From assembly GCA_029945375.1 (NCBI GenBank), contig CM057058.1:1426001-1490000 (forward strand): a DNA stretch of 64,000 bases, in the 5' to 3' direction. A model generated the notes under the pieces. That model did no database searches and was not told the origin of the DNA. It saw only the letters and a list, made by a program, of their open reading frames with translations. Positions 588-28,941 of this stretch are shown in pieces (positions within the stretch are counted from its first letter, which is position 1; each line of letters opens with the position of its first letter). A program made the position numbers and the translations under genes. The stretch is from Agaricus subrufescens (Eukaryota > Basidiomycota > Agaricomycetes > Agaricales > Agaricaceae).

Positions 588-1223
588 ATGCCTCGTGAAC
601 CACGCACAAAACAAACCGCGAGAAAGTCGACTGGAGCTGGTTCACCTGCTAAGGCTCCCAGAGCCAAATCCACCTCCAAAAAGGCTGCTGCCGCTGATCC
701 GCAGCAGATGGTGTCTTTTACGGTCCCGCTTCCTGCCCTTCTTCAGATGGCATTGCCTCAGGGCTTCGCTCCAGGCGCTACTACCAGTGCTCCAGCTCCG
801 AAGACGAAGCAAACGGCGAAGAAGAGCACTGGTGGTGCAGCTCCTCGAGCTACCAAGTCCAAAAAAGAGGAGGGTCCATCCACTTCAACTGCTGTCGTTC
901 CGGCCGCTTCCAAACCGAAAGCAGCCAAAGCAGCCCCCAAAAAAGCAGCACCAAAAAAAACGACAGCTGCAACCCCACAGCAGAGTGCTTCTTCAAGCAC
1001 GTCGAACCATGTTACCATGTCCTTCAACATCTCTATGCAGATGCAGGAGAATTCAACTAGCTCCTCTACCACTACCACTCGTACTCGTGCACCCCGTACC
1101 AAGCAGACAGCCAAGAAAACCCCTAGAGCAACAAAACCCAAACCGTCTCAACCTGCAGAGGGTAACATGATACCCCATAGTTATGACGAGATTGAGGACA
1201 TTGAGATGGCCGAGCCGTATTAG
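588..1223 (+). CDS. protein with three histone H3 tail-like motifs
   Basis: Single-exon gene of 211 residues. The first ATG of the frame is at 588; the frame is open back to a TTG at 543, which is not a likely start. Residues 6-16 (RTKQTARKSTG) are identical to histone H3 R2-G12. Near copies follow at 72-83 (KTKQTAKKSTGG) and 170-178 (RTKQTAKKT), so the K4 equivalent is kept three times and the K9 equivalent lies in ARKS, AKKS and AKKT. Between them are Lys/Ala/Pro-rich, histone H1-like linkers (about 17-36 and 84-130), two hydrophobic alternating stretches (about 41-58 and 141-153), and an acidic C-terminus (199-209). There is no histone fold, so this is not histone H3. The sequence suggests an unstructured nuclear protein that could be modified or read by H3K4/H3K9 enzymes and readers; this is inference. 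Codon use looks like an expressed gene and the frame is intact. Confidence 0.8.
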   Translation: MPREPRTKQTARKSTGAGSPAKAPRAKSTSKKAAAADPQQMVSFTVPLPALLQMALPQGFAPGATTSAPAPKTKQTAKKSTGGAAPRATKSKKEEGPSTSTAVVPAASKPKAAKAAPKKAAPKKTTAATPQQSASSSTSNHVTMSFNISMQMQENSTSSSTTTTRTRAPRTKQTAKKTPRATKPKPSQPAEGNMIPHSYDEIEDIEMAEPY

Positions 1224-1526: not shown

Positions 1527-1926
1527 TAATGTGAAACAATAAACTCAGTGATACGAGTAGTCGTGTTGATCACTTGAGTAAGTACCTAATGTGAAACAAT
1601 AAACTACTCGATAGTCAGTATTCCGAAGTAAGTCATATGCTATCCTACTCACCTCAGTGATACGAGTAGTCGTGTTGATCACTGAGGTGTTCGGGTGGCT
1701 TGCTCAGCCTTTTATACCCGGCCATTTCGGCAGAAACAACTATACAGTTTTAACAAGTGGAAAAGGAAATGGAAAAACAAATATCGGGTAAAAAGGAGAA
1801 TGGGGAAAGACATTGTGATCTACGGTGTCCGTATTAGGAAGGAGTAAGAAAAGGGATCAATGAAAGGTCATCGAGACTGAAAGTGAAAACGTATGATCGT
1901 AATAGTATCCCGAATCACTCACAACA
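1527..1926 (-). repeat. Copia-1 3' LTR
   Basis: It is 400 bp and carries two direct copies of a 19-bp block starting TAATGTGAAAC and two copies of an imperfect palindrome whose arms are CTCAGTGAT and ATCACTGAG (one arm copy reads ATCACTTGAG). The gag-pol stop codon (1919-1921) lies inside this LTR, 8 bases past its edge. Confidence 0.95.
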
Positions 1927-4900
1927 CTTCCCCTGGTTCGGGATACTCGGGCGCAGATTCCTTCCGAATATTTATTCCATCGCAACAGCGGATGACGGCG
2001 TCGCGCACGAGGGGTTTCGTCATTATATCTGCCAAGTTCCCGGCTGATGGCACGTATACGAAGGAGATATCACCGTTCTCGACCTTTTCCTTGACGAAGT
2101 GGTACTTCACCCGAATATGTTTAGTGCGACAATGGTTCTTGTCGTTTTTAGTATTCGCAATGGCTCCGTTGTTGTCAGCATTGATAGTGGTGGGTCCATC
2201 TTGGTGTAATCCAATTTCGTCAAGGAACTTTTCCAGCCACATAGCCTGTTGTGCCGCTCTAGTAAACGCCATAAATTCCGCCTCTACTGTCGAAACCGCC
2301 ACCGTTTCTTGTCGTTTGCTTCCCCACGATACTGCACCTCCAGCGACAAAGAAAATATATCCTTCGGTTGACCTGCTCGTGTCTGAGTCTCCAGCGTAGT
2401 CAGCATCGACATAGCCTTCTGGTTTTAACGTTCCTCCACGGCGATAAGTGATACCATAATCCATTGTCCCTTTGATATATTCAAGTGTGTGCTTTAAGGC
2501 CTGCCAATGAGCTCGCCCCGGATCGGTTGCGAAGCGAGACAATAGATTAACGGCGAAAGACAAGTCCGGTCTGGTGGCCACTTGGAGCCACATTAATGCT
2601 CCCAGTGCCTCCCGATATGGGATTTTAGACATTTCTTCACGCTCAAAGTCGTTTTGTGGGCAATCGGCTTTGGTGAGGGTGATACCCGCAGGCAATGGGG
2701 TGGATCGCGGTTTTGCTTCAGTGAGATTGAACCTCTCGAGCATCCGTTCGCAGAATGCTTTCTGCGATAGACGTATATCTCCATCTTTATTACGGTCGAT
2801 TTTCATGCCCAAGATGTGTCTCGCTTCCCCCAAGTCCTTAATTTCATAGCTGCTGGCGAGTTCACCCTTCGCTCTCTCTTCCCCGGCTTCGGTAGTTGAC
2901 GCTCCCAGTACGTCGTCGGTCCAAGTTGACGTGAGCGTAAACTCGTCACCGTTGAGTTTCGATCGGACCTGAGAGTCGGCCTTGGATTTATAGTATCCGT
3001 GTAACTTGTAAGTTTTGTCGAGAGTCTGCGCCCAGTCGTGTGCGCCTTGCATAGTGCCGTATAGCGTTTTGAGGAGCCTCCAAACCTTTCCTTCCCCCTC
3101 CTCAAAACCTTTCGGCGGCTCCATGTAGACCTCGAAGCGGTTATCGCTGTTTAAGAATGCGGATACAAAATCCACTTGCCATAACTTCATCCCCCTCGCA
3201 GCCGCTATCGCACATACCATCCTCACCGATTCCAACCTCGCTACCGACGCATAAGTTTCATCATAATCCTCCCCCAATACCTGCGTAAATCCTTTCGCCA
3301 CCAATCTCGCTTTCCTCGCCGCTACGTTCCCATCCTCGTCAAATTTTAAGGCGTATACCCATTTCGATTCCACAACGTTCCTTCCAACCGGCCTATCCAC
3401 CACTTCGAACACTTTCTTTTCCTTCATCAATCCATATTCCCTTTCCATAGGGGCTAGCCAGATTTCCGTGCGTCGCATCGCTTCACGGTAGGTTTTTGGT
3501 ACCCAGTTGTCTCTATTGATATTGATGACGTTCGCTTTGGTGCGCCCCTCATACTCCATATTCTCCAATTTCTTCTGCGATGGTTTCGACACTCTCCCCG
3601 ATCGCCTAGGGGGCTCCATGGGTGTATCATCACGGCTGTCAGGGGATTCAGGTTCAACTACTCCATCTCCGGCGTCATCGTCCCCGACCATTCCTTTTGG
3701 GGCATCGACTTGATCCGTCCGCTTAGGGTGGAGTGTTGTGATGTCGAGTGGTCTGGGTGCATTTGCGGATTCGATGTTGGTCTGTCTGGTTGATTGAGTA
3801 GGGGAGTCGTCGTGTATACCGTTGTTGGCGCGCTCTGTGTAGTTTGTAGTTCCCTCTTCGAAGATTACGTCGTGTGATCGCGAAATGACACCCGAGGTGC
3901 GGTCTAGAAGTTTGTACCCTGATGTTCCGTAATAGCCGATCAGGGTGAGTTTCACTGACCTCGGGGCCAGCTTTGAGGTTGCAACTTCGGAAGGAATATG
4001 TGCGTATGCTGTTGAACCATATGCGCGAAGGTGTGAGATGTCTTGTCGTTTTCCCGTCCATAGTTCTGCTGGTATTTTCCCGGGTATGCGCGCAGTAGGT
4101 AATAGGTTCTTAATATAGTTCGCCGTGACGAAAGCGTCCGCCCAATATCGCGATGGTAGACCCGACTCGGCCATCATACTTCTCCCGAGCTCGAGGATAG
4201 TCCGCATCGACCGTTCTGCTACCCCATTCTGTTGGTGGGCGTATGGGGTGGTATATTCCAACACCAGACCCTTCTCCTTCGCGTACGAGTCCCACATCGC
4301 GTTCATCCACTCTCGTCCCATATCTATCCTCACACGTTTCAACTTCTTGCCTGTCTGTAGCTCGGATTGCGCCTGGAACTCCTTCAAGCATTCTAGTGTG
4401 GTCTCGGCGGTCTTCTCGTGGATGGGGAATACGGTCCTAAAAGATGATGCGCCATCTACTATAACCATGAGGTATCTGGCACCTCCGGCCGATTGTATTG
4501 CTGCCGGCCCCCACAAGTCGATATGCACTCTCTCCAATATTTCGCTTTCAACCTCCCCCTTTTCGTTGTGCGGATGTACGGTATGCTTCCCATAAATGCA
4601 GTCTTCGCACTTTCCTTTCATCTCATGTTTACCATCAATCTCTAGACCGTCCACCAACTTGAGCCGTAACATATCTCTCAATGCGCCTTCCCCGGCATGT
4701 GCTAACCTGCGGTGCCAAGTATCAAATGGAACCGCTTTATGCTTCGCCTCCGCCAAGTGAGTGGAAGTGTTTGGTTCGCGATCAGTGATGTTGACCACGA
4801 ATAGTCCTTCGATGTTTTTAGCAACGATAATGACTTTCCCGTTCCTATCACTGACGGTGGCCTTGTCACCATCAAATACGGCATATAGACCTTTAGTCGT

Positions 4901-6313
4901 TAGGCGCGATACGGAAATCAAGTTATGGCGAAGCTCGGGGGAGTGAAGTGCATCGGATAAAAGAAGTTTTGTCTTTCTTCCATCTATGGTTGTATGTATC
5001 TCAACGGTTCCGCTAGCGGTAATATCAAATTTAGCGGATTTGTTGGCGGAGTGTCCATCTCTTGGTCGTGAGTATGGTTTGTATGAGGAGAAGTTATTAG
5101 CGTCAACGAAACAATGGTCCGTAGCGCCAGAGTCGAGCAATGTCAAGAGTTGTGTGTCATCGGTCGAATTGGAAATCGAGGACAGGGCCGATGTAGTAAG
5201 TACATGTGTATTCCTAACGATATGTCCTAACTCCTCTTCCTTATCCATGACGTTCTGGAAATCATTGGAAGTTCTGGAGGTAGGACAATCGTCAGAGTCG
5301 GCGGCGGTGGTTACAGATTCGGGATGCAGTACCTGTTGGCAGTCCGTGATGGTAGATGACAGTGCGTATACACGCGGTTCGGTGTCCTGGTTGGTAGTCG
5401 AAGCAACATTTGCGGACGTGTTGGGCTTCCCTCCGGTGTTGGGTTTCTTATTTTTGAACCACGGGGGGAACTGTCCCGCCTTTCCACCACCTTCCCAGTA
5501 ACAGTCTGCAATAACATGTCCAACCCTACGCCAGTTTGGATTTGCGCAAGTCAGGTGCTGGTTCTTCGGTTGATACCGTCCTCGTCCTCCAGCGTTGAAT
5601 TGAAGGGCCGTGGTAGAGTTTTGTGGGTTCGCGACCCGATCCTTGCTTATGCGAGCCCAGTGGGTGCTGAGCACAGCGATGGCGTCTCTCGAAGTTGTGG
5701 TGTTATAGAGGGTGGATACTATAGGGTCCCATGAGCGCGGTAGGGATTGAAGGACGATAGTCCTGAAACCCTTGTCGTCGATTTGCGAACCGAGTGCAGT
5801 GGACATCGCCCATAAAGTTCGTAGCCTCGATATATGTTCAGTAAAATCATGGTTGTCTGAATATACGCATTCTCGCAAGTCTCGTTCGGCGTTCATCAGT
5901 GCCAGTTCGGATACTTTGGCGTATTGGTCGTTGTAGGATTTCCAGGCTTCGGCAGCCGTCCCGGACATGATGATTCCCAGACCAATGGGATCCTTAGTGT
6001 TGTATACGAGTAGTCCTTTAGCCCATGCGTTTCTGGTAGTCCATTCGGCGAGCGATGGAGTATGGGAGTCCCATGTCGTAGTGATGTCTGCATAGATGGA
6101 GGCTTGGTCGGTAGCGTCATCAGGTTCTTCGGTAGTAGTCTGGGTCGCATCTGTGGTAATGGTAGGACTAGTTGGTTTGTGTATGGTACCATCGAGGTAT
6201 CCTGCAATTCCCCTGAGGTCGGCGGCTATGCCAATCAGGCCGCTCCATGCTACCCAATTTGTGCCGTCGAACTTATCCGCATCGGAAAAGATAGGAGGCA
6301 GGTTTTGAGACAT
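1919..6313 (-). CDS. Copia-1 Gag-Pol polyprotein
   Basis: One 1464-residue frame encoding Gag, protease, integrase, reverse transcriptase and RNase H in Ty1/copia order. Gag (about 1-340) has the UBN2/DUF4219-like N-terminus. The zinc-knuckle region at 256-271 reads C-x4-W-x4-H-x4-C, so one expected Cys is Trp. Protease has DSGAT at 393. Integrase shows the HHCC zinc region (H-RRLAH...C-EDC) then D-LWGP, D-MGRE and NGVAE for the D,D,E triad. Reverse transcriptase has KARLVAKGF, QVDFVSAFLN and the catalytic TWTDD. RNase H has DADYAGD, TVEAEF and ends in DIMTKPL. No frameshift or stop is present. The ATG at 6313 lies about 70 bases after the primer site. It is probably an autonomous element except for the altered zinc knuckle. 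Confidence 0.95.
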   Translation of the reverse strand: MSQNLPPIFSDADKFDGTNWVAWSGLIGIAADLRGIAGYLDGTIHKPTSPTITTDATQTTTEEPDDATDQASIYADITTTWDSHTPSLAEWTTRNAWAKGLLVYNTKDPIGLGIIMSGTAAEAWKSYNDQYAKVSELALMNAERDLRECVYSDNHDFTEHISRLRTLWAMSTALGSQIDDKGFRTIVLQSLPRSWDPIVSTLYNTTTSRDAIAVLSTHWARISKDRVANPQNSTTALQFNAGGRGRYQPKNQHLTCANPNWRRVGHVIADCYWEGGGKAGQFPPWFKNKKPNTGGKPNTSANVASTTNQDTEPRVYALSSTITDCQQVLHPESVTTAADSDDCPTSRTSNDFQNVMDKEEELGHIVRNTHVLTTSALSSISNSTDDTQLLTLLDSGATDHCFVDANNFSSYKPYSRPRDGHSANKSAKFDITASGTVEIHTTIDGRKTKLLLSDALHSPELRHNLISVSRLTTKGLYAVFDGDKATVSDRNGKVIIVAKNIEGLFVVNITDREPNTSTHLAEAKHKAVPFDTWHRRLAHAGEGALRDMLRLKLVDGLEIDGKHEMKGKCEDCIYGKHTVHPHNEKGEVESEILERVHIDLWGPAAIQSAGGARYLMVIVDGASSFRTVFPIHEKTAETTLECLKEFQAQSELQTGKKLKRVRIDMGREWMNAMWDSYAKEKGLVLEYTTPYAHQQNGVAERSMRTILELGRSMMAESGLPSRYWADAFVTANYIKNLLPTARIPGKIPAELWTGKRQDISHLRAYGSTAYAHIPSEVATSKLAPRSVKLTLIGYYGTSGYKLLDRTSGVISRSHDVIFEEGTTNYTERANNGIHDDSPTQSTRQTNIESANAPRPLDITTLHPKRTDQVDAPKGMVGDDDAGDGVVEPESPDSRDDTPMEPPRRSGRVSKPSQKKLENMEYEGRTKANVININRDNWVPKTYREAMRRTEIWLAPMEREYGLMKEKKVFEVVDRPVGRNVVESKWVYALKFDEDGNVAARKARLVAKGFTQVLGEDYDETYASVARLESVRMVCAIAAARGMKLWQVDFVSAFLNSDNRFEVYMEPPKGFEEGEGKVWRLLKTLYGTMQGAHDWAQTLDKTYKLHGYYKSKADSQVRSKLNGDEFTLTSTWTDDVLGASTTEAGEERAKGELASSYEIKDLGEARHILGMKIDRNKDGDIRLSQKAFCERMLERFNLTEAKPRSTPLPAGITLTKADCPQNDFEREEMSKIPYREALGALMWLQVATRPDLSFAVNLLSRFATDPGRAHWQALKHTLEYIKGTMDYGITYRRGGTLKPEGYVDADYAGDSDTSRSTEGYIFFVAGGAVSWGSKRQETVAVSTVEAEFMAFTRAAQQAMWLEKFLDEIGLHQDGPTTINADNNGAIANTKNDKNHCRTKHIRVKYHFVKEKVENGDISFVYVPSAGNLADIMTKPLVRDAVIRCCDGINIRKESAPEYPEPGEVL

Positions 6314-22994: not shown

Positions 22995-23711
22995 ATGCCA
23001 AAAGTCAAAAAATCTGATGTCATTCATTATCATGACGAAATGACCTGGAAACCTGGTCGTTTTGAAATGACCAAAGACATGAAAAACCGAACCAAACATA
23101 TTGGTCGTCCTACCAAACACTATCATCCTCCCCCTCCTGTCCCTCTCATCAAGCGTGTTCTGTCGCCAGAAGAATATGCTGAGATCAGGAAGGACCATGA
23201 AGATGAAATGAATCAAATGTCACTTCTTCAACGACTCACCAAAGAACGTAAAACTTTGGAAGAACGAATTGCAAGCTCTCCTCCACTTTTGGACCGCATT
23301 ACTCCAGCTGTTCCAAAACTTCCCACACTCTCTCCACCTATCCCACCTGATCTTCATATCAAGAAAACCAAGTATCTCTTACGTATTCAAGAGTTCAAAC
23401 AGGTTATCCAACCTACTCTGGATCGTCTCGAACCTGTTTTCAAGGCCTTTGAACAAAGGGTCTCAGAACTCACTCTTCCGCAGGAGAAATCGGCAGAAGA
23501 GGAATTGAACGACCCACTCTGGGATTGGTTCAATAGATTGCAGGTTATTGAGAGAGATATTGAAAAGATAGGTCATAAATTCAAAAATGGAGACTGGAGA
23601 AAACTTAAAGGAGCCTGTAAACGAATTAAAGCAGTGTCTTTTAGCAACTTAGCTACTAGATTGGTAGAAATTAGACAGGAATTGTTATCTCTAAACATTA
23701 CATTACCTTAA
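22995..23711 (+). CDS. Gypsy-2 ORF0, unknown protein
   Basis: Intact 238-residue frame from ATG 22995, upstream of gag by 110 bases. The N-terminus is basic (MPKVKKSDVIHYHDEMTWKP), a proline run follows at about 45-50, and two likely coiled-coil regions lie at about 75-95 and 125-160 (RIQEFKQVIQPTLDRLEPVF). The C-terminus is basic. I find no retroviral Gag, zinc-finger or enzyme motif. An additional ORF before gag is not standard for chromoviruses; it could be an accessory structural or RNA-binding protein. The absence of stops suggests that it was under selection until recently. Confidence 0.75.
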   Translation: MPKVKKSDVIHYHDEMTWKPGRFEMTKDMKNRTKHIGRPTKHYHPPPPVPLIKRVLSPEEYAEIRKDHEDEMNQMSLLQRLTKERKTLEERIASSPPLLDRITPAVPKLPTLSPPIPPDLHIKKTKYLLRIQEFKQVIQPTLDRLEPVFKAFEQRVSELTLPQEKSAEEELNDPLWDWFNRLQVIERDIEKIGHKFKNGDWRKLKGACKRIKAVSFSNLATRLVEIRQELLSLNITLP

Positions 23712-23821
23712 AATGGAGATCTACTGTCTTTGACTGGCATTGGCTATGTGTGATTTTCTTTTTATTTGCACTTCTTTCACAACAAACTTTATTGTTCATT
23801 ATTGACAAGGTTACTTAGACC

Positions 23822-25279
23822 ATGTCTGACTTCATTCCCAACTACATCCCATACTCTTCATCTGTGGTTATGCCAGAAGATAATGCTGATGCCTGGGCGA
23901 ACCGAGTTTCTCATGGAGTTAACTTTGCTGTTCTCAACATGGCTGATGAACCGCCTCGTGCAGCCCTGGCTCATCTACTTCGCAATGCCCACACAGTGGA
24001 TACTGAAACTATGAAAGAGTATATTGACGAAGAAGTTGAAGGATTATCTTCCCATTATAATGAGGCACTCGATAGGGCATACTCTCGAATCGCTATTCTT
24101 GAGGCCAGGCTGTCTTCATTGTTGAACCTTGAAGCAAGAGTTAATCTTCTTCAAAATCAGATAGGCCAAACTCCTGCTGATGCTAACTCTGGTGTTGCAA
24201 AAACCAGAGTTCCTGAACCTCCGACCTATGCTGGATCTGAGAATAAAATGCAGCTAGATGATTGGTTAAATCAAATGGCCCTATACTGTGCAGCTTCTGG
24301 AATCGTCACTGACCACCAGAAAATCATATGTGCACTTACTCGATTACGTGCACCAGCTAGCACTTATATGAAGGACTATTTTGTCAAGGTTCAAATGGAT
24401 CAACCTCTTGGAAACTGGGAAAACTTTGTTAAGGAATTGAAGAGTATTTATGGACAAAGGGACGATAAGGAAGGTGCTAAAAAGGAATTGGCAGCACTAT
24501 GGGGTAATAAGGAGCTTGCCAAGAAAAACTTTGTCAAATTTGTGGAACGTTATCGTACTTTGGCTAGGATTGTTGACTATCCTGATGAAGTCCACATTGA
24601 CAAGTTGAAAGATGTTATACCTGATGAGTTGCGAAAATCGCTTATCATGTATGAAATCAATAATTTGGCGCCAAAAACTTGGGATGAATATCTCCAGTTA
24701 TTGCTTAAGGCATTCAAACTCCTTCACCCTGATAAGGCTCAAGGTGTCATTTTCGGCGACAGCGGAAATGCAAGTGGTAGTGGCAACAAGGATCCATATG
24801 CTATGGAGATTGATCAGGCGAAAAAGAAGAAAACCAAAGAGGCTAGTAGTCAAGAGAAGGTACAGAAATACTGTCAAATCTGTGCTGGCAAAGGGTTGAA
24901 GACAAAATCTAAGACCCACAATACTAGTGACTGCTATGATAAACCTGGCAATGAGAGTAAACGTCCTCAGAAGTCTACTCCATCTTCTTCTAAACCAACT
25001 CCATCCTCGTCATCTGGATCTTCAAATGGTACTCATAAACCCAAAAACTTCAAGACTCGACTAGTCGAGTTGCTCAATTCCATGGATGATGATGACCCAG
25101 AAACCCCTTCTGAGGTTGTCACCGTCAACAGCGCGACCATCGAAGAACTTCCTGATTCCACGCCTGTTGAAACAAAGGCTGTAGCACAAGTCGGTGATGT
25201 GCTGAAGGGATCTGGGAAGCCGACGGGCTCCAAAAAGCTTAAAGGAAGGGCTCAGATGGATTTTCCGGAGGGACTGTAG
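23822..25279 (+). CDS. Gypsy-2 Gag
   Basis: Intact 485-residue capsid polyprotein. A coiled-coil segment lies at about 75-115. The retrotransposon Gag core follows (YAGSENKMQLDDWLNQM ... WENFVKELKSIYG ... FVKFVERYRTLARIVDY). A non-standard zinc knuckle CQICAGKGLKTKSKTHNTSDC (C-x2-C-x13-H-x4-C spacing by eye) lies at about 358-378, then a Ser/Pro-rich tail. It ends at TAG 25277-25279 and overlaps the pol frame by 37 bases, so pol needs a -1 shift. Confidence 0.9.
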   Translation: MSDFIPNYIPYSSSVVMPEDNADAWANRVSHGVNFAVLNMADEPPRAALAHLLRNAHTVDTETMKEYIDEEVEGLSSHYNEALDRAYSRIAILEARLSSLLNLEARVNLLQNQIGQTPADANSGVAKTRVPEPPTYAGSENKMQLDDWLNQMALYCAASGIVTDHQKIICALTRLRAPASTYMKDYFVKVQMDQPLGNWENFVKELKSIYGQRDDKEGAKKELAALWGNKELAKKNFVKFVERYRTLARIVDYPDEVHIDKLKDVIPDELRKSLIMYEINNLAPKTWDEYLQLLLKAFKLLHPDKAQGVIFGDSGNASGSGNKDPYAMEIDQAKKKKTKEASSQEKVQKYCQICAGKGLKTKSKTHNTSDCYDKPGNESKRPQKSTPSSSKPTPSSSSGSSNGTHKPKNFKTRLVELLNSMDDDDPETPSEVVTVNSATIEELPDSTPVETKAVAQVGDVLKGSGKPTGSKKLKGRAQMDFPEGL

Positions 25280-28200
25280 AGGATAATGTCTGTGATCTAC
25301 AGTCTGGAAGTAGTATACCTCATGTTGGCTCAGATAGTTCTGAAGTAGTACTGGATGCTTGTGTAAATAATATATTGCGCAACAAGACTTCTTCCTTTAG
25401 ACTTCCAGTAACACTATGGGTATACGGCACAAAAGTGCAGACCGAGGCTTTAGTTGATTCGGGAGCCACAACAAACTTCATCGACAAAGAGTTTGTCAAA
25501 CAAAATAACCTGGCTACACATAAATTGGCTTCACCGTATAGAGTAATCAATGCGGATGGAACTCCAAATAAATCTGGACAGATTAATGAATATGTCCGTG
25601 CCTATGTTGAGATTGGTTCTCACAAGTCCACACATTATCTCTTTGTCACTCAGTTAGGGGACAAGAATATGATGATTGGATATTCATACTTGTATAAACA
25701 CAATCCAACTATTGATTGGCACAATGGGGAATGGGAGTTCACCAGGTGCCCGGATACATGTACCAGTAAAGCCCGTAAAACACGAGATGTAGAAGCTGGT
25801 GCCAACGAGCTTTCTCTCGACTCTGATAATCCATGGGAATCTTCATTGGACGACTTAGGTGATGAAGACATGGATAATCCACATATTAATTGGGTCGATG
25901 TAAATGACCCTGACGATCGCCAACAAGCTATGGTGATAGCATCTATGTTCGACAAAGACATAGAAGAGGAACTTGACGATGAAGATACTAAGAACTGGAA
26001 GGAACATGTGCCAGAATGGCTACATGAGTACGGTGACGTGTTTTCTAAAGTCAAGTCAGAACGTATGCCAACTAGAAAGGAATATGACCATGGAATTGAG
26101 TTTGTTGAAGGCGCAATGCTTCCCAAACCAGCTAAGGTCTATCCTTTGTCTCCAAAAGAGAGAAATTCTCTTGATTTATGGATTGATGAAGAACTCCGTA
26201 AAGGTTATATACGACCTTCTACAAGTCCAATTGCTGCCCCATTCTTCTTTGTCAAAAAGAAAGATGGCAGTCTTCGACCAGTCATGGATTACCGTGCACT
26301 CAATGGTATCACTGTCAAAAACCGTTATCCTATTCCAAGAATCTCTGACTTGATTGAATCTCTCAGTCAAGCTTCAATATTCACAAAAATTGACCTTAGA
26401 TGGGGATATAACAATGTCCGCATCAAAAAGGGAGATGAATGGAAAACTGCTTTTATAACACGACGTGGACTATTTGAAGCAACGGTTATGTATTTTGGTT
26501 TCTCTAATGCACCAGCCACATTCCAAAGTATGATGAACAATATACTTGGAGACTTGATTCGTAAAGGACAAGTTATGGTGTACTTAGATGATATCCTTAT
26601 ATTTGGGAATGATAAAAAGGAACATCAGAAACTGGTCAAAGAAGTGCTGAAAAGACTTCGAGAAAATGACCTATTTGCTAAAGCAGAAAAGTGTTCCTTT
26701 GAACAAACAAGTATGAAATATCTTGGAATGGTCATTTCCCATAACAAGGTCGAAATGGATGAGGAGAAACTCAATGGAGTTCTTGAGTGGCCAGTACCTA
26801 CTAAGGTTAAACATGTTCAGGCATTTATTGGATTTGCGAATTACTATCGCAGGTTTATTAAAGACTTTTCCAAAATTGTCAAGCCACTCACCAATCTGAC
26901 CAAGAAAGATCAACCTTGGGTTTGGGAAGCAGAACAGCAAAATGCATTTGAAGCGCTGAAAAAGGCTTTCACCACTGCTCCCATTCTACGTATCCCAGAT
27001 GATGAAAATCCCTTTAGGCTGTCAACAGATGCAAGTGATTTTGCTACTGGTGCAGTCCTCTCCCAGCTGGACCCAACTGATAGCTTGTGGCACCCAGTTG
27101 CTTATTTCTCTAAGTCATTAGATATTCATGAACGAAATTATGAAATATATGACAAAGAGTTATTAGCCATTATCAGGGGATTAGAGGAATATCGTCATCT
27201 TCTAGAGGGACATCCTAAGATAATTGAGATCTGGTCAGATCATCAAAACCTCACATACTTCAAGTCAGCACAAAAACTGACTAGGAGACAAGCCCGGTGG
27301 GCACTATACCTCACACGCTTTCACTATTCCCTATACCACAAACCAGGAAAGACGATGCAAGCTGAAGACCCTCTGTCCAGGAGGCCAGACCATGAAGAGG
27401 GGGTAAACTTCGATAATGAGGATCAAATTCTTTTGAAGCCTGAATTTTTCGCTGTTCAAGCTATCGAAGCTGTTCATGAGTCACCTATAAATGATGAACA
27501 AATCCTAAAAGAGGTCAAACAAGCATTACTTTCCGATAATGTGACAAAGGACTATAAGTCACTTTTACAGTCTGGTCCTCGTGAATTTGGAAAATCACTA
27601 CAGGATTGGAACTATGAAAATGGTCTACTACTATATAGAGGAAAGGTCTACATCCCTAAAAGCATAGATGATCATCTGAGATGTCGTATTGTCCAGATTC
27701 ATCATGACTTGCCCTCAGCAGGACATCCAGGACGATGGAAAACATATGAATTGGTTTCTAGAAACTATTGGTGGCCTAGTATGTCTATATTTGTCAAGAA
27801 CTATGTTAAAGGCTGTGATATGTGTCAGCGGATGAAAAATCACCCACAACAGCCCTATGGACTGCTTATTCCAAACAAGGTACCTAATGGTCCTTGGGAA
27901 ATTATATCTACCGACCTTATTACTCAATTACCTGAGTCAAATGGCTATGACGCAATATGTGTTGTTGTTGACAGATTAACAAAACGAGCTCACTTCTATC
28001 CCATTAACAACCGGTTCACCTCACAAGATCTAGCGCAATTACTATATGATAGGATATATCCCCTACATGGATTGCCATTACAGATCATATCTGATAGAGG
28101 AGTACAGTATTCGGCTGAACTCTTCCAGAATTGGTGTCGGATATTGGGTATTGAGTCAACTATGTCAACAGCCTACCATCCTCAAACAGATGGTCAGACT

Positions 28201-28941
28201 GAGCGTGTTAACCAGACTCTGGAACAGTACCTACGGTGTTATGTTGATTATAACCTCACCAACTGGTCAGACCTGCTTTCATCAGCAGAGTTTGCATACA
28301 ACAACCAAGCACATGAAGGTACTAAGGAATCACCATTTTTCCTTGAGTATGGTCGGCATCCACGAGCAGGACCTATTGTCAAGGCGACTACCCATTTTGA
28401 CCTTAATGACATAACATATAAAAGACAAGAGGCACAAGAGCAGGCGAAAGCAGCTCTTATACTTGCAGCAGAAAGAATGAAATGGTACTATGACCAAGGG
28501 GTCCAGAAAGTTCCCTTTAGAGTTAGAGATAAAGTACTACTCAACCTCAAGGATTATCAGACAACAGAGTGAGCATTATGACCACGTTTTGAGGGACCAT
28601 TTGAAATCATTGAACAACTGTCCCCTGTAACATTCAGGTTACGTATGCCAGCTCGATATCGTTCTATACATCCAGTCTTTCATGCTAGCAAGTTAGTCAC
28701 CTACTCTGAACCCACCATCCTCGGACAAAAACCATCAGCACCACCACCTATCCAAATTGGTGGACATGATGAATGGGAAGTCGAAAAGATTCTCCAACAC
28801 CGAGTTCGTAACAGGAAGAATGAATTCCTAGTTAGATGGAAAGGGTTTACCCAAGGAGATGATACCTAGGAACCAGAATCAAACCTTAAAAATGCGACTG
28901 AAAAGATTCAGGAGTATTTCCATCATAATCCCAAGCACTAG
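25243..28941 (+). pseudogene. Gypsy-2 Pol with three late in-frame stops
   Basis: The pol frame opens at 25243 after TAA 25240-25242, in frame -1 to gag; no ATG is needed if translation arrives by frameshift. Protease shows LVDSGATTNFID. Reverse transcriptase has RPVMDYRALN, FTKIDLRWGYN and the catalytic YLDDI. RNase H has STDASDFATG and DKELLAI. Integrase has the HHCC region (HHDLPSAGHPG...CDMCQ) and the D,D,E pattern (STDLI, SDRGVQY, QTERVNQ). After 1065 codons a TGA (28570-28572), a second TGA (28579-28581) and a TAG (28867-28869) interrupt the segment containing the chromodomain (EWEVEKILQHRVRN...FLVRWKGF), which ends at 28941. All three stops stand where Trp is likely. The enzymes themselves look intact. 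Confidence 0.9.

What the first reader, a model, noticed from the sequence alone, without database searches (positions are those of the whole stretch)
588..1223. A non-histone protein with three tandem copies of the histone H3 tail
Residues 6-16 are identical to H3 R2-G12, and two more near-identical motifs follow at 72-83 and 170-178, within H1-like basic linkers and without a histone fold. The K4 and K9 contexts are repeated three times. Host or pathogen histone mimics are known as short motifs; a fungal protein built around three H3 tails is, as far as I know, undescribed. The motif is internal (Pro-Arg-Glu-Pro precede it), so readers that need the free H3 Ala1 should not bind, while SET-domain writers and chromodomains could. 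It could titrate or recruit H3K4/K9 machinery.
Basis: partly seen in the sequence, partly recalled or inferred. Interest (0 to 1): 0.92.

Follow-up and report, generated by a model that had tools for sequence, protein, structure and literature searches.

The report
Fungal protein with repeated H3 tails
A small fungal protein carries three copies of the tail of histone H3 but no histone body, and several mushroom-forming fungi have similar proteins with three to six copies, which suggests an overlooked kind of protein that imitates chromatin to engage the gene-silencing machinery.

Summary
ORF 588-1223 is intact (211 aa) with three H3-tail copies and no detected histone fold. In the 44.65-Mb genome the unsplit TKQTA[RK]K pattern has six hits: these three and three H3 genes. 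Codons differ between copies, so they are no recent H3 fragment.

Seven similar proteins with 3-6 tails turned up: four named Agaricomycetes (Peniophora, Dentipellis, Heterobasidion, Daedalea) and three metagenomic. Over 32 copies the H3 match is selective: G12 31, P16 31, R2 29, K4 26, but K14 only 1 and K18 only 2 (my queries favoured K14-less relatives). All 12 lysines of the Dentipellis protein are K4 or K9 equivalents. A tunicate-like group and an H3 variant show comparable K9-centred arrays.

The genome's only detected SUV39/DIM-5-type methyltransferase gene also carries an H3K9-like tail.

Best reading: a disordered, multivalent H3K9 mimic, methylated by that enzyme and bound by chromodomain proteins. 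The sequence pattern is shown; methylation, binding and expression are not. The window protein is a less perfect member: only copy 1 keeps R8-G12, and its linkers are lysine-rich.

The parts
588..1223 (+). ORF of the tandem H3-tail protein, 211 aa, ATG to TAG, single open frame
   Evidence: no Pfam family above cut-off; pI 10.5
603..635 (+). H3-tail copy 1, residues 6-16 RTKQTARKSTG (= H3 R2-G12; R8-G12 intact; K14 position is G)
801..836 (+). H3-tail copy 2, residues 72-83 KTKQTAKKSTGG (R2K, R8K; followed by AAPRATK, K14 position is A)
1095..1121 (+). H3-tail copy 3, residues 170-178 RTKQTAKKT (R8K, S10T, then PRATK; G12 lost)
912..962 (+). Lys/Ala/Pro-rich linker (residues 109-125) resembling a histone H1 tail in composition only
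   Evidence: sequence; no H1 domain
705..728 (+). Hydrophobic segment 1 (residues 40-47), weakly predicted beta strand between tails 1 and 2
   Evidence: block 41-50 has mean pLDDT 72 in an otherwise low-confidence single-sequence model
1008..1031 (+). Hydrophobic segment 2 (residues 141-148), weakly predicted beta strand between tails 2 and 3
   Evidence: block 141-150 has mean pLDDT 76

Best explanation
It is an intrinsically disordered, multivalent mimic of the H3 tail, tuned to lysine 9. Proposed mechanism: the SUV39/DIM-5-type methyltransferase of the cell methylates the K9-equivalent lysines, and chromodomain readers of the HP1 type bind the methylated copies, so that one chain links several readers (or several writer molecules) away from, or between, nucleosomes. 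K14 and K18 are absent, which would leave the tails outside acetylation and other traffic at those positions. Shown: the sequence pattern, its recurrence in other fungi, its selective conservation, and a K9-type mimic in the methyltransferase gene itself. Inferred: methylation, reader binding, nuclear location, disorder and effect on silencing.
For: (1) Three copies, no detected fold. (2) The copies keep residues while codons differ: copies 1 and 3 agree in 7 of 11 residues and 0 of those 7 codons; copies 1 and 2 in 9 residues and 4 codons; copy 1 and the two distinct H3 coding sequences in 11 residues and 3 or 4 codons; copy 2 and those in 9 residues and 3 or 5 codons. Serine 10 is TCG in copy 1 and AGC in copy 2. 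(3) Seven other proteins with 3-6 tails and no Pfam family above cut-off. (4) In 32 copies, at positions not used to pick them, G12 is kept in 31, P16 in 31, R2 in 29, Q5 in 28, K4 in 26, but K14 in 1 and K18 in 2. (5) In the alignable trio P0063/P0065/P0066, 51 of 68 ungapped tail columns are invariant against 16 of 126 linker columns. (6) Linkers of the seven relatives hold 17 K against 69 R in 1107 residues; Dentipellis has 12 lysines, all at K4 or K9. (7) The unsplit pattern A[RK]K[ST][ST]GGxxP has 6 exact hits in the genome: window copy 2, three H3 genes (two of identical sequence where read), a CENP-A-like gene and the Pre-SET gene on C10 (identities). GT-AG introns (three candidates on each side: 44, 56, 68 and 48, 54, 117 nt) join that mimic in frame to the neighbouring exons, including the Pre-SET exon. 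(8) R8-G12 is what DIM-5 needs in vitro, while K14R has no effect there (PMC3248561, passages). (9) Precedent: G9a/GLP automethylate H3-like motifs, which creates HP1 sites (PMC9768651, passages); methylated ATF7IP is bound by the MPP8 chromodomain (PMC6172828, passages).
Against: No transcript, modification or binding data. Only copy 1 of the window protein keeps all of R8-G12; copies 2 and 3 have K8, and copy 3 lacks G12. Its linkers have 14 lysines, unlike the relatives. K4 is also kept in 26 of 32 copies, which a pure K9 reading does not need. The composite queries used K14-poor motifs on purpose, to avoid H3, so they favour K14-less relatives; P0001, P0054 and P0063, known before them, lack K14 in 10 of 11 copies, but the latter two were found with the K14-less window protein. 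Conservation at positions 6-11 is partly built into the pattern that picked the copies. The three tail columns sets come from proteins found by their tails. No chromoshadow domain rang (its controls did not ring either), so HP1 itself was not identified in this genome. The control had 2 hits, and the looser TA[RK]K[ST][ST]G pattern had 26 hits against 5 in the control, several of them plainly unrelated. The mimic in the methyltransferase gene rests on predicted splicing.
Confidence: 0.45

Rival explanations
1. Decoy or antagonist: the tails occupy the K9 methyltransferase or HP1 and thereby weaken silencing, instead of building it. K14-less tails would be accepted as substrate but fail at a later, K14-dependent step.
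For: [quoted passage not shown] the fungal tails lack K14 in 31 of 32 copies. In the tunicate-like group one tail of each of three proteins carries M at K9, and H3K9M traps Clr4 (PMC5030085, abstract).
Against: In all 32 fungal copies K9 is a methylatable lysine (though K9 was required by the selecting pattern). The Neurospora effect concerns H3 inside nucleosomes. Nothing here measures dose.
Confidence: 0.27
2. Lure against chromodomain retroelements: the tails, if methylated, bind the integrase chromodomains of gypsy-type elements.
For: 150 chromodomain matches were scored out of 196 candidates in the genome, many in open frames of about 1150-1230 codons, one inside the window itself (window 28774-28923, with one stop).
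Against: Correlation only; not tested whether relatives with few such elements keep the protein.
Confidence: 0.07
3. A K4-centred mimic acting on COMPASS/Set1, K4 demethylases or PHD readers.
For: K4 is kept in 26 of 32 copies and R2 in 29; three relatives start MAR-[TSA]-KQ as H3 does.
Against: K4 is lost in 6 copies that keep K9; 29 of 32 copies are internal, without a free Ala1; T3 is kept in only 19. The copies were picked by their K9 side, which biases this comparison.
Confidence: 0.1
4. No chromatin role: a low-complexity basic protein whose tails are relics of an old H3 fragment or chance.
For: Low-complexity composition; linkers do not align between species outside the metagenomic trio; copies 2 and 3 are imperfect.
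Against: Codons diverged while residues stayed; tail columns are conserved against linkers in the trio; recurrence with 3-6 copies in several fungi.
Confidence: 0.11

Closest known systems
H3K9 histone mimics in non-histone proteins (G9a/GLP automethylation sites, ATF7IP K16, LIG1 K126)
   Same: A short A-R-K-[ST]-like context in a non-histone protein; in those cases methylated and read by HP1, MPP8 or a Tudor reader (passages; the UHRF1-LIG1 case from an abstract start in the listing)
   Different: The cases I saw have one or two short motifs in a larger protein; here 3-6 long tails (R2 to P16) make up much of a small protein, with K14 and K18 removed. Methylation is not shown here
Histone H3 / CENP-A
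   Same: Tail sequence R2-G12 identical in copy 1
   Different: No histone fold detected; several tails per chain
PCNA-associated factor PAF15 (Pfam PF15715, 'histone like domain')
   Same: H3-like N-terminus in a small disordered protein (recalled)
   Different: No PF15715 match for the window protein or its seven fungal-type relatives
Linker histone H1 tails
   Same: Lys/Ala/Pro-rich stretch in the window protein
   Different: No globular H1 domain detected; the relatives' linkers are lysine-poor

Membership tests
Core histone H3 | Histone fold (PF00125) | tested here: not met
   No Pfam family above cut-off; 193 of 211 residues have pLDDT below 70 in a single-sequence model
Core histone H3 | N-terminal tail with K4/K9 context | tested here: met
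Non-histone H3K9 mimic | H3K9-like sequence in a protein without histone fold | tested here: met
Non-histone H3K9 mimic | Lysine methylated by an H3K9 methyltransferase | not testable with these tools
   Residues R8-G12 needed by DIM-5 are all present in copy 1 only
Non-histone H3K9 mimic | Methylated lysine bound by a chromodomain, Tudor or similar reader | not testable with these tools
   none
PAF15 (PF15715) | Match to the PF15715 profile | tested here: not met
   of the proteins scanned there only the discarded nematode sequence P0061 matches
Linker histone H1 | Globular winged-helix domain | tested here: not met
Fungal tandem H3-tail proteins (grouping proposed here) | At least 3 H3K9-type tails, no fold, K14 replaced | tested here: met
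   common descent of all eight is not shown

The most novel reading that the evidence does not exclude
Tandem H3-tail proteins are a class of their own: nucleosome-free, portable platforms that carry little more than the K4/K9 lysines, evolved at least three times (Agaricomycetes; larvacean tunicates; an H3 variant with three tails before its fold), each time keeping K9 and mostly dropping K14. In this fungus they work with a methyltransferase that carries the same kind of mimic, so that writer, reader and mimic form a non-chromosomal H3K9-methyl network that sets heterochromatin strength.
Probability: 0.3. Interest if true: 0.95.

Novelty: new variant of a known kind. Interest (0 to 1): 0.85.

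Why it matters
Histone mimicry is known from single short motifs. Proteins made of several long H3 tails, with unrelated linkers but retained K4/K9 contexts, would be natural test objects for how much of H3K9 signalling needs a nucleosome at all, whether HP1 bridging can be driven by a free multivalent ligand, and why K14 is absent. Named fungi with sequenced genomes carry such genes, so the question can be put to experiment.

Tried and rejected
Protein search with the window protein itself was swamped by real H3 and fused H3 genes; composite queries longer than 249 aa excluded 136-aa H3 and brought the relatives forward. Rows dropped: of 213 proteins held after the three searches, a filter on H3-core words left 12 without a fold, among them P0061 (Cooperia; three broken H3 starts), which I dropped from the fungal set; P0066 was mis-flagged by that filter and was added back by hand; P0122 (Piloderma; one tail of a broken H3) was dropped after reading. 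Of 689 and 512 hits only the best 120 each were listed, and only about 7950 candidates were scored in each search, so the number of relatives is a lower bound.

A scan of viral contigs for TKQTARK[ST]TG with CGN arginine codons gave nothing; the same scan of prokaryotic genomes gave six records, all reading as H3 genes and taken for eukaryotic contamination. The looser K9 pattern gave 26 hits in the own genome against 5 in the control. A repeated TARKTTG site in six places (five read) lies in near-identical 117-codon frames with no further likeness to the tail. C7:2711990 (TAKKSTG) is a 27-codon frame, taken as chance. Structure models: the window protein is mostly unconfident, the Oikopleura protein wholly so (mean pLDDT 36); no fold search was run. 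A transposon origin of the gene was considered: the copia-type ORF 1919-6313 lies downstream on the other strand, and one search found the gene once. A sequence search of solved structures gave only H3 chains among the 60 of 129 matches shown (best E 6e-4). A region taken as a possible HP1 gene (C3:4046812) proved to be a retroelement integrase end by its reading.

Full report
THE OBSERVATION. Window 588-1223 is one open frame of 211 aa. Residues 6-16 equal H3 R2-G12; residues 72-83 and 170-178 are near copies. No Pfam family reaches its cut-off (best E 8.7). A single-sequence AlphaFold2 model is mostly unconfident (mean pLDDT 53; 193 of 211 residues below 70); the only 10-residue blocks above 70 hold two short strands, 40-47 and 141-148. 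The DNA pattern for QTA[RK]K[ST] hits the window three times against a shuffled mean of 0.03. In the whole genome (44,652,945 bases, 44 contigs; the window is C2:1426001-1490000) TKQTA[RK]K has six hits, three here and three in H3 genes, with a reversed-pattern control of 0 (H3 genes read). Tails split by introns are missed by such a pattern, as the further H3-type gene on C1 shows. A protein search of the genome finds the gene once.

NOT A FRESH H3 FRAGMENT. Over 11 positions, copies 1 and 2 agree in 9 residues and 4 codons; copies 1 and 3 in 7 and 0; copies 2 and 3 in 7 and 2; copy 1 and the two distinct H3 coding sequences in 11 residues and 3 or 4 codons; copy 2 and those in 9 residues and 3 or 5 codons; copy 3 and those in 7 residues and 3 codons. 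For comparison the two H3 sequences share 8 of 11 codons with each other. The serine of copy 1 is TCG, that of copy 2 AGC; going from one to the other passes through another residue unless two bases change at once. Residues were kept, or regained, while codons differ.

RELATIVES IN FUNGI. The first protein search (63 hits with E up to 1; only the 7982 candidates sharing most words were scored) was dominated by H3, but held P0054 (Peniophora sp. CONT, 180 aa, four tails) and P0063 (metagenome, 205 aa, four tails), read. Two composite queries (689 hits, 120 listed; 512 hits, 120 listed) added P0065 and P0066 (records without organism, four tails each), P0067 (Dentipellis sp. KUC8613, 360 aa, six tails), P0143 (Daedalea quercina, 197 aa, four tails) and P0197 (Heterobasidion irregulare, 190 aa, three tails). 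Peniophora, Dentipellis and Heterobasidion are Russulales; Daedalea quercina is listed as Fomitopsis quercina, Polyporales. None of the seven has a Pfam family above its cut-off. In six of the eight proteins the last K9 lies 14-16 residues from the C-terminus; in the window protein and Peniophora it lies 34 and 35. With tails masked, linker similarity is clear only for P0063-P0066 (E 1.5e-8) and weak for P0065-P0066 (0.036); the best pair outside this trio has 0.38. So common descent of the eight is possible but not shown.

WHAT IS KEPT AND WHAT IS LOST. I took 32 copies from the eight proteins with the pattern [TYS]A[RK]K[STP][TSPG], so conservation at positions 6-11 is partly by construction. 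Outside it: R2 29, T3 19, K4 26, Q5 28, G12 31, G13 22, K14 1, A15 18, P16 31, R17 20, K18 2 of 32. K14 is replaced most often by R (10) and H (7). The composite queries leaned towards K14-less motifs; the three proteins known before them lack K14 in 10 of 11 copies, though two of these were found with the K14-less window protein. In the trio P0063/65/66, 51 of 68 ungapped tail columns are invariant, against 16 of 126 linker columns. The seven relatives' linkers have 17 K and 69 R in 1107 residues; the Dentipellis protein has 12 lysines in all, six at K4 and six at K9. The window protein departs from this with 14 linker lysines.

OUTSIDE FUNGI. P0163 (Oikopleura dioica, 478 aa) and P0070, P0073 and P0092 (no organism given; similar to P0163 by reading, not aligned) carry three or four H3-tail copies reaching to about H3 residue 24, with acidic linkers. 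Of 14 copies, K9 is K in 11 and M in 3; K4 is kept in 6, K14 in 4, K18 in 5, K23 in 4. The passages I read of the Oikopleura histone paper (PMC3156773, 12 of 20 places) do not mention such a protein. A third set (P0161, P0166, P0171, P0176) has three ARKS sites in front of an H3 fold, K14 absent in all twelve. I take these sets as independent of the fungal one; no tree was built.

THE SILENCING MACHINERY OF THE SAME GENOME. One Pre-SET match (C10:1226010, E 1.7e-15, three candidates scored; 58.7 bits) marks a SUV39/DIM-5-type gene; the following frames contain NHSCDPN and CRCG..NCVG, typical of SET and post-SET segments (motif names recalled, no profile run on them). Upstream of the Pre-SET exon lies HRTRQIARKSTGGRLPRQRL, identical to H3 1-20 at 13 of 20 positions, with R at K4 and K14. 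Candidate GT-AG introns (three solutions on each side, the shortest 44 and 48 nt) join it in frame to the neighbouring exons, so it most likely belongs to that enzyme; no transcript was seen. The unsplit pattern A[RK]K[ST][ST]GGxxP has six exact hits in the genome: window copy 2, three H3 genes, a CENP-A-like gene (C2:2490085, GRATARKSTGGRPPPP) and this enzyme (control 2). Window copies 1 and 3 do not fit that pattern. Chromodomains are plentiful (150 scored matches of 196 candidates, many in long retroelement-size frames). No chromoshadow domain rang, but the controls did not ring either.

MECHANISM. In Neurospora, DIM-5 needs R8-G12 in vitro and is indifferent to K4L, K14R, A15M and P16A, whereas K14R lowers DNA methylation semi-dominantly in vivo (PMC3248561, passages). 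Most fungal tails keep what DIM-5 needs and lose K14. G9a and GLP automethylate H3-like motifs and so gain HP1 sites (PMC9768651, passages), and ATF7IP is a methylated mimic read by MPP8 (PMC6172828, passages). I therefore judge that the protein is a multivalent K9-type substrate and reader ligand (0.45), with a decoy as the main rival (0.27). For the window protein itself only copy 1 has the full R8-G12; copies 2 and 3 have K8 and copy 3 lacks G12, so it may be a weaker or partly decayed member.

NOVELTY. The listings of seven paper searches that bear on it, in open-access PMC only and in part cut to the best rows, showed no report of proteins with tandem H3 tails and no fold; apart from passages of five papers and one abstract the papers were not read. 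The kind - histone mimic - is known; the multi-tail form with K14/K18 removed appears to be new.

Noticed in passing
G000:C10:1227610-1227638 (locus L069, minus strand): H3K9-type tail mimic HRTRQIARKSTGGRLPRQRL in the N-terminal part of the SUV39/DIM-5-type methyltransferase gene; could be an automethylation or HP1 site as in G9a. Several acidic V/I-rich motifs (VIVIDDD, EVIEIDDD, DIIDLTLDD) nearby look like SUMO-interacting motifs (recalled).
   Followed up: partly
P0070, P0073, P0092 (records without organism, similar to Oikopleura dioica P0163): One tail of each carries M in place of K9 (TARMSIG); H3K9M is known to trap K9 methyltransferases (PMC5030085 abstract).
   Followed up: partly
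P0161, P0166, P0171, P0176: H3 variants with three ARKS sites in a row before the histone fold; sources printed as merc, lgn and ena (merc taken as a marine eukaryote catalogue, recalled); K14 absent in all twelve sites.
   Followed up: partly
G000:C2:2490085 (loci L040, L072): CENP-A-like gene whose N-tail keeps TARKSTGGRPP in an otherwise divergent tail.
   Followed up: no
window 1919-6313 and 22995-28923: Copia-type ORF (1464 codons) on the minus strand next to the gene, and a gypsy-type element with a chromodomain match at 28774-28923 carrying one stop (element types by inspection; chromodomain).
   Followed up: no
window 705-728 and 1008-1031: Two similar hydrophobic segments (MVSFTVPL, VTMSFNISM) between the tails, weakly predicted as strands; possible self-association sites.
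   Followed up: no
G000:C5:1961000-1963500 and G000:C17:21500-23500 (L025, L027): The H3 genes on C5 and C17 read identical over the stretch printed, including intron sequence: a recent duplication or an assembly duplicate.
   Followed up: no
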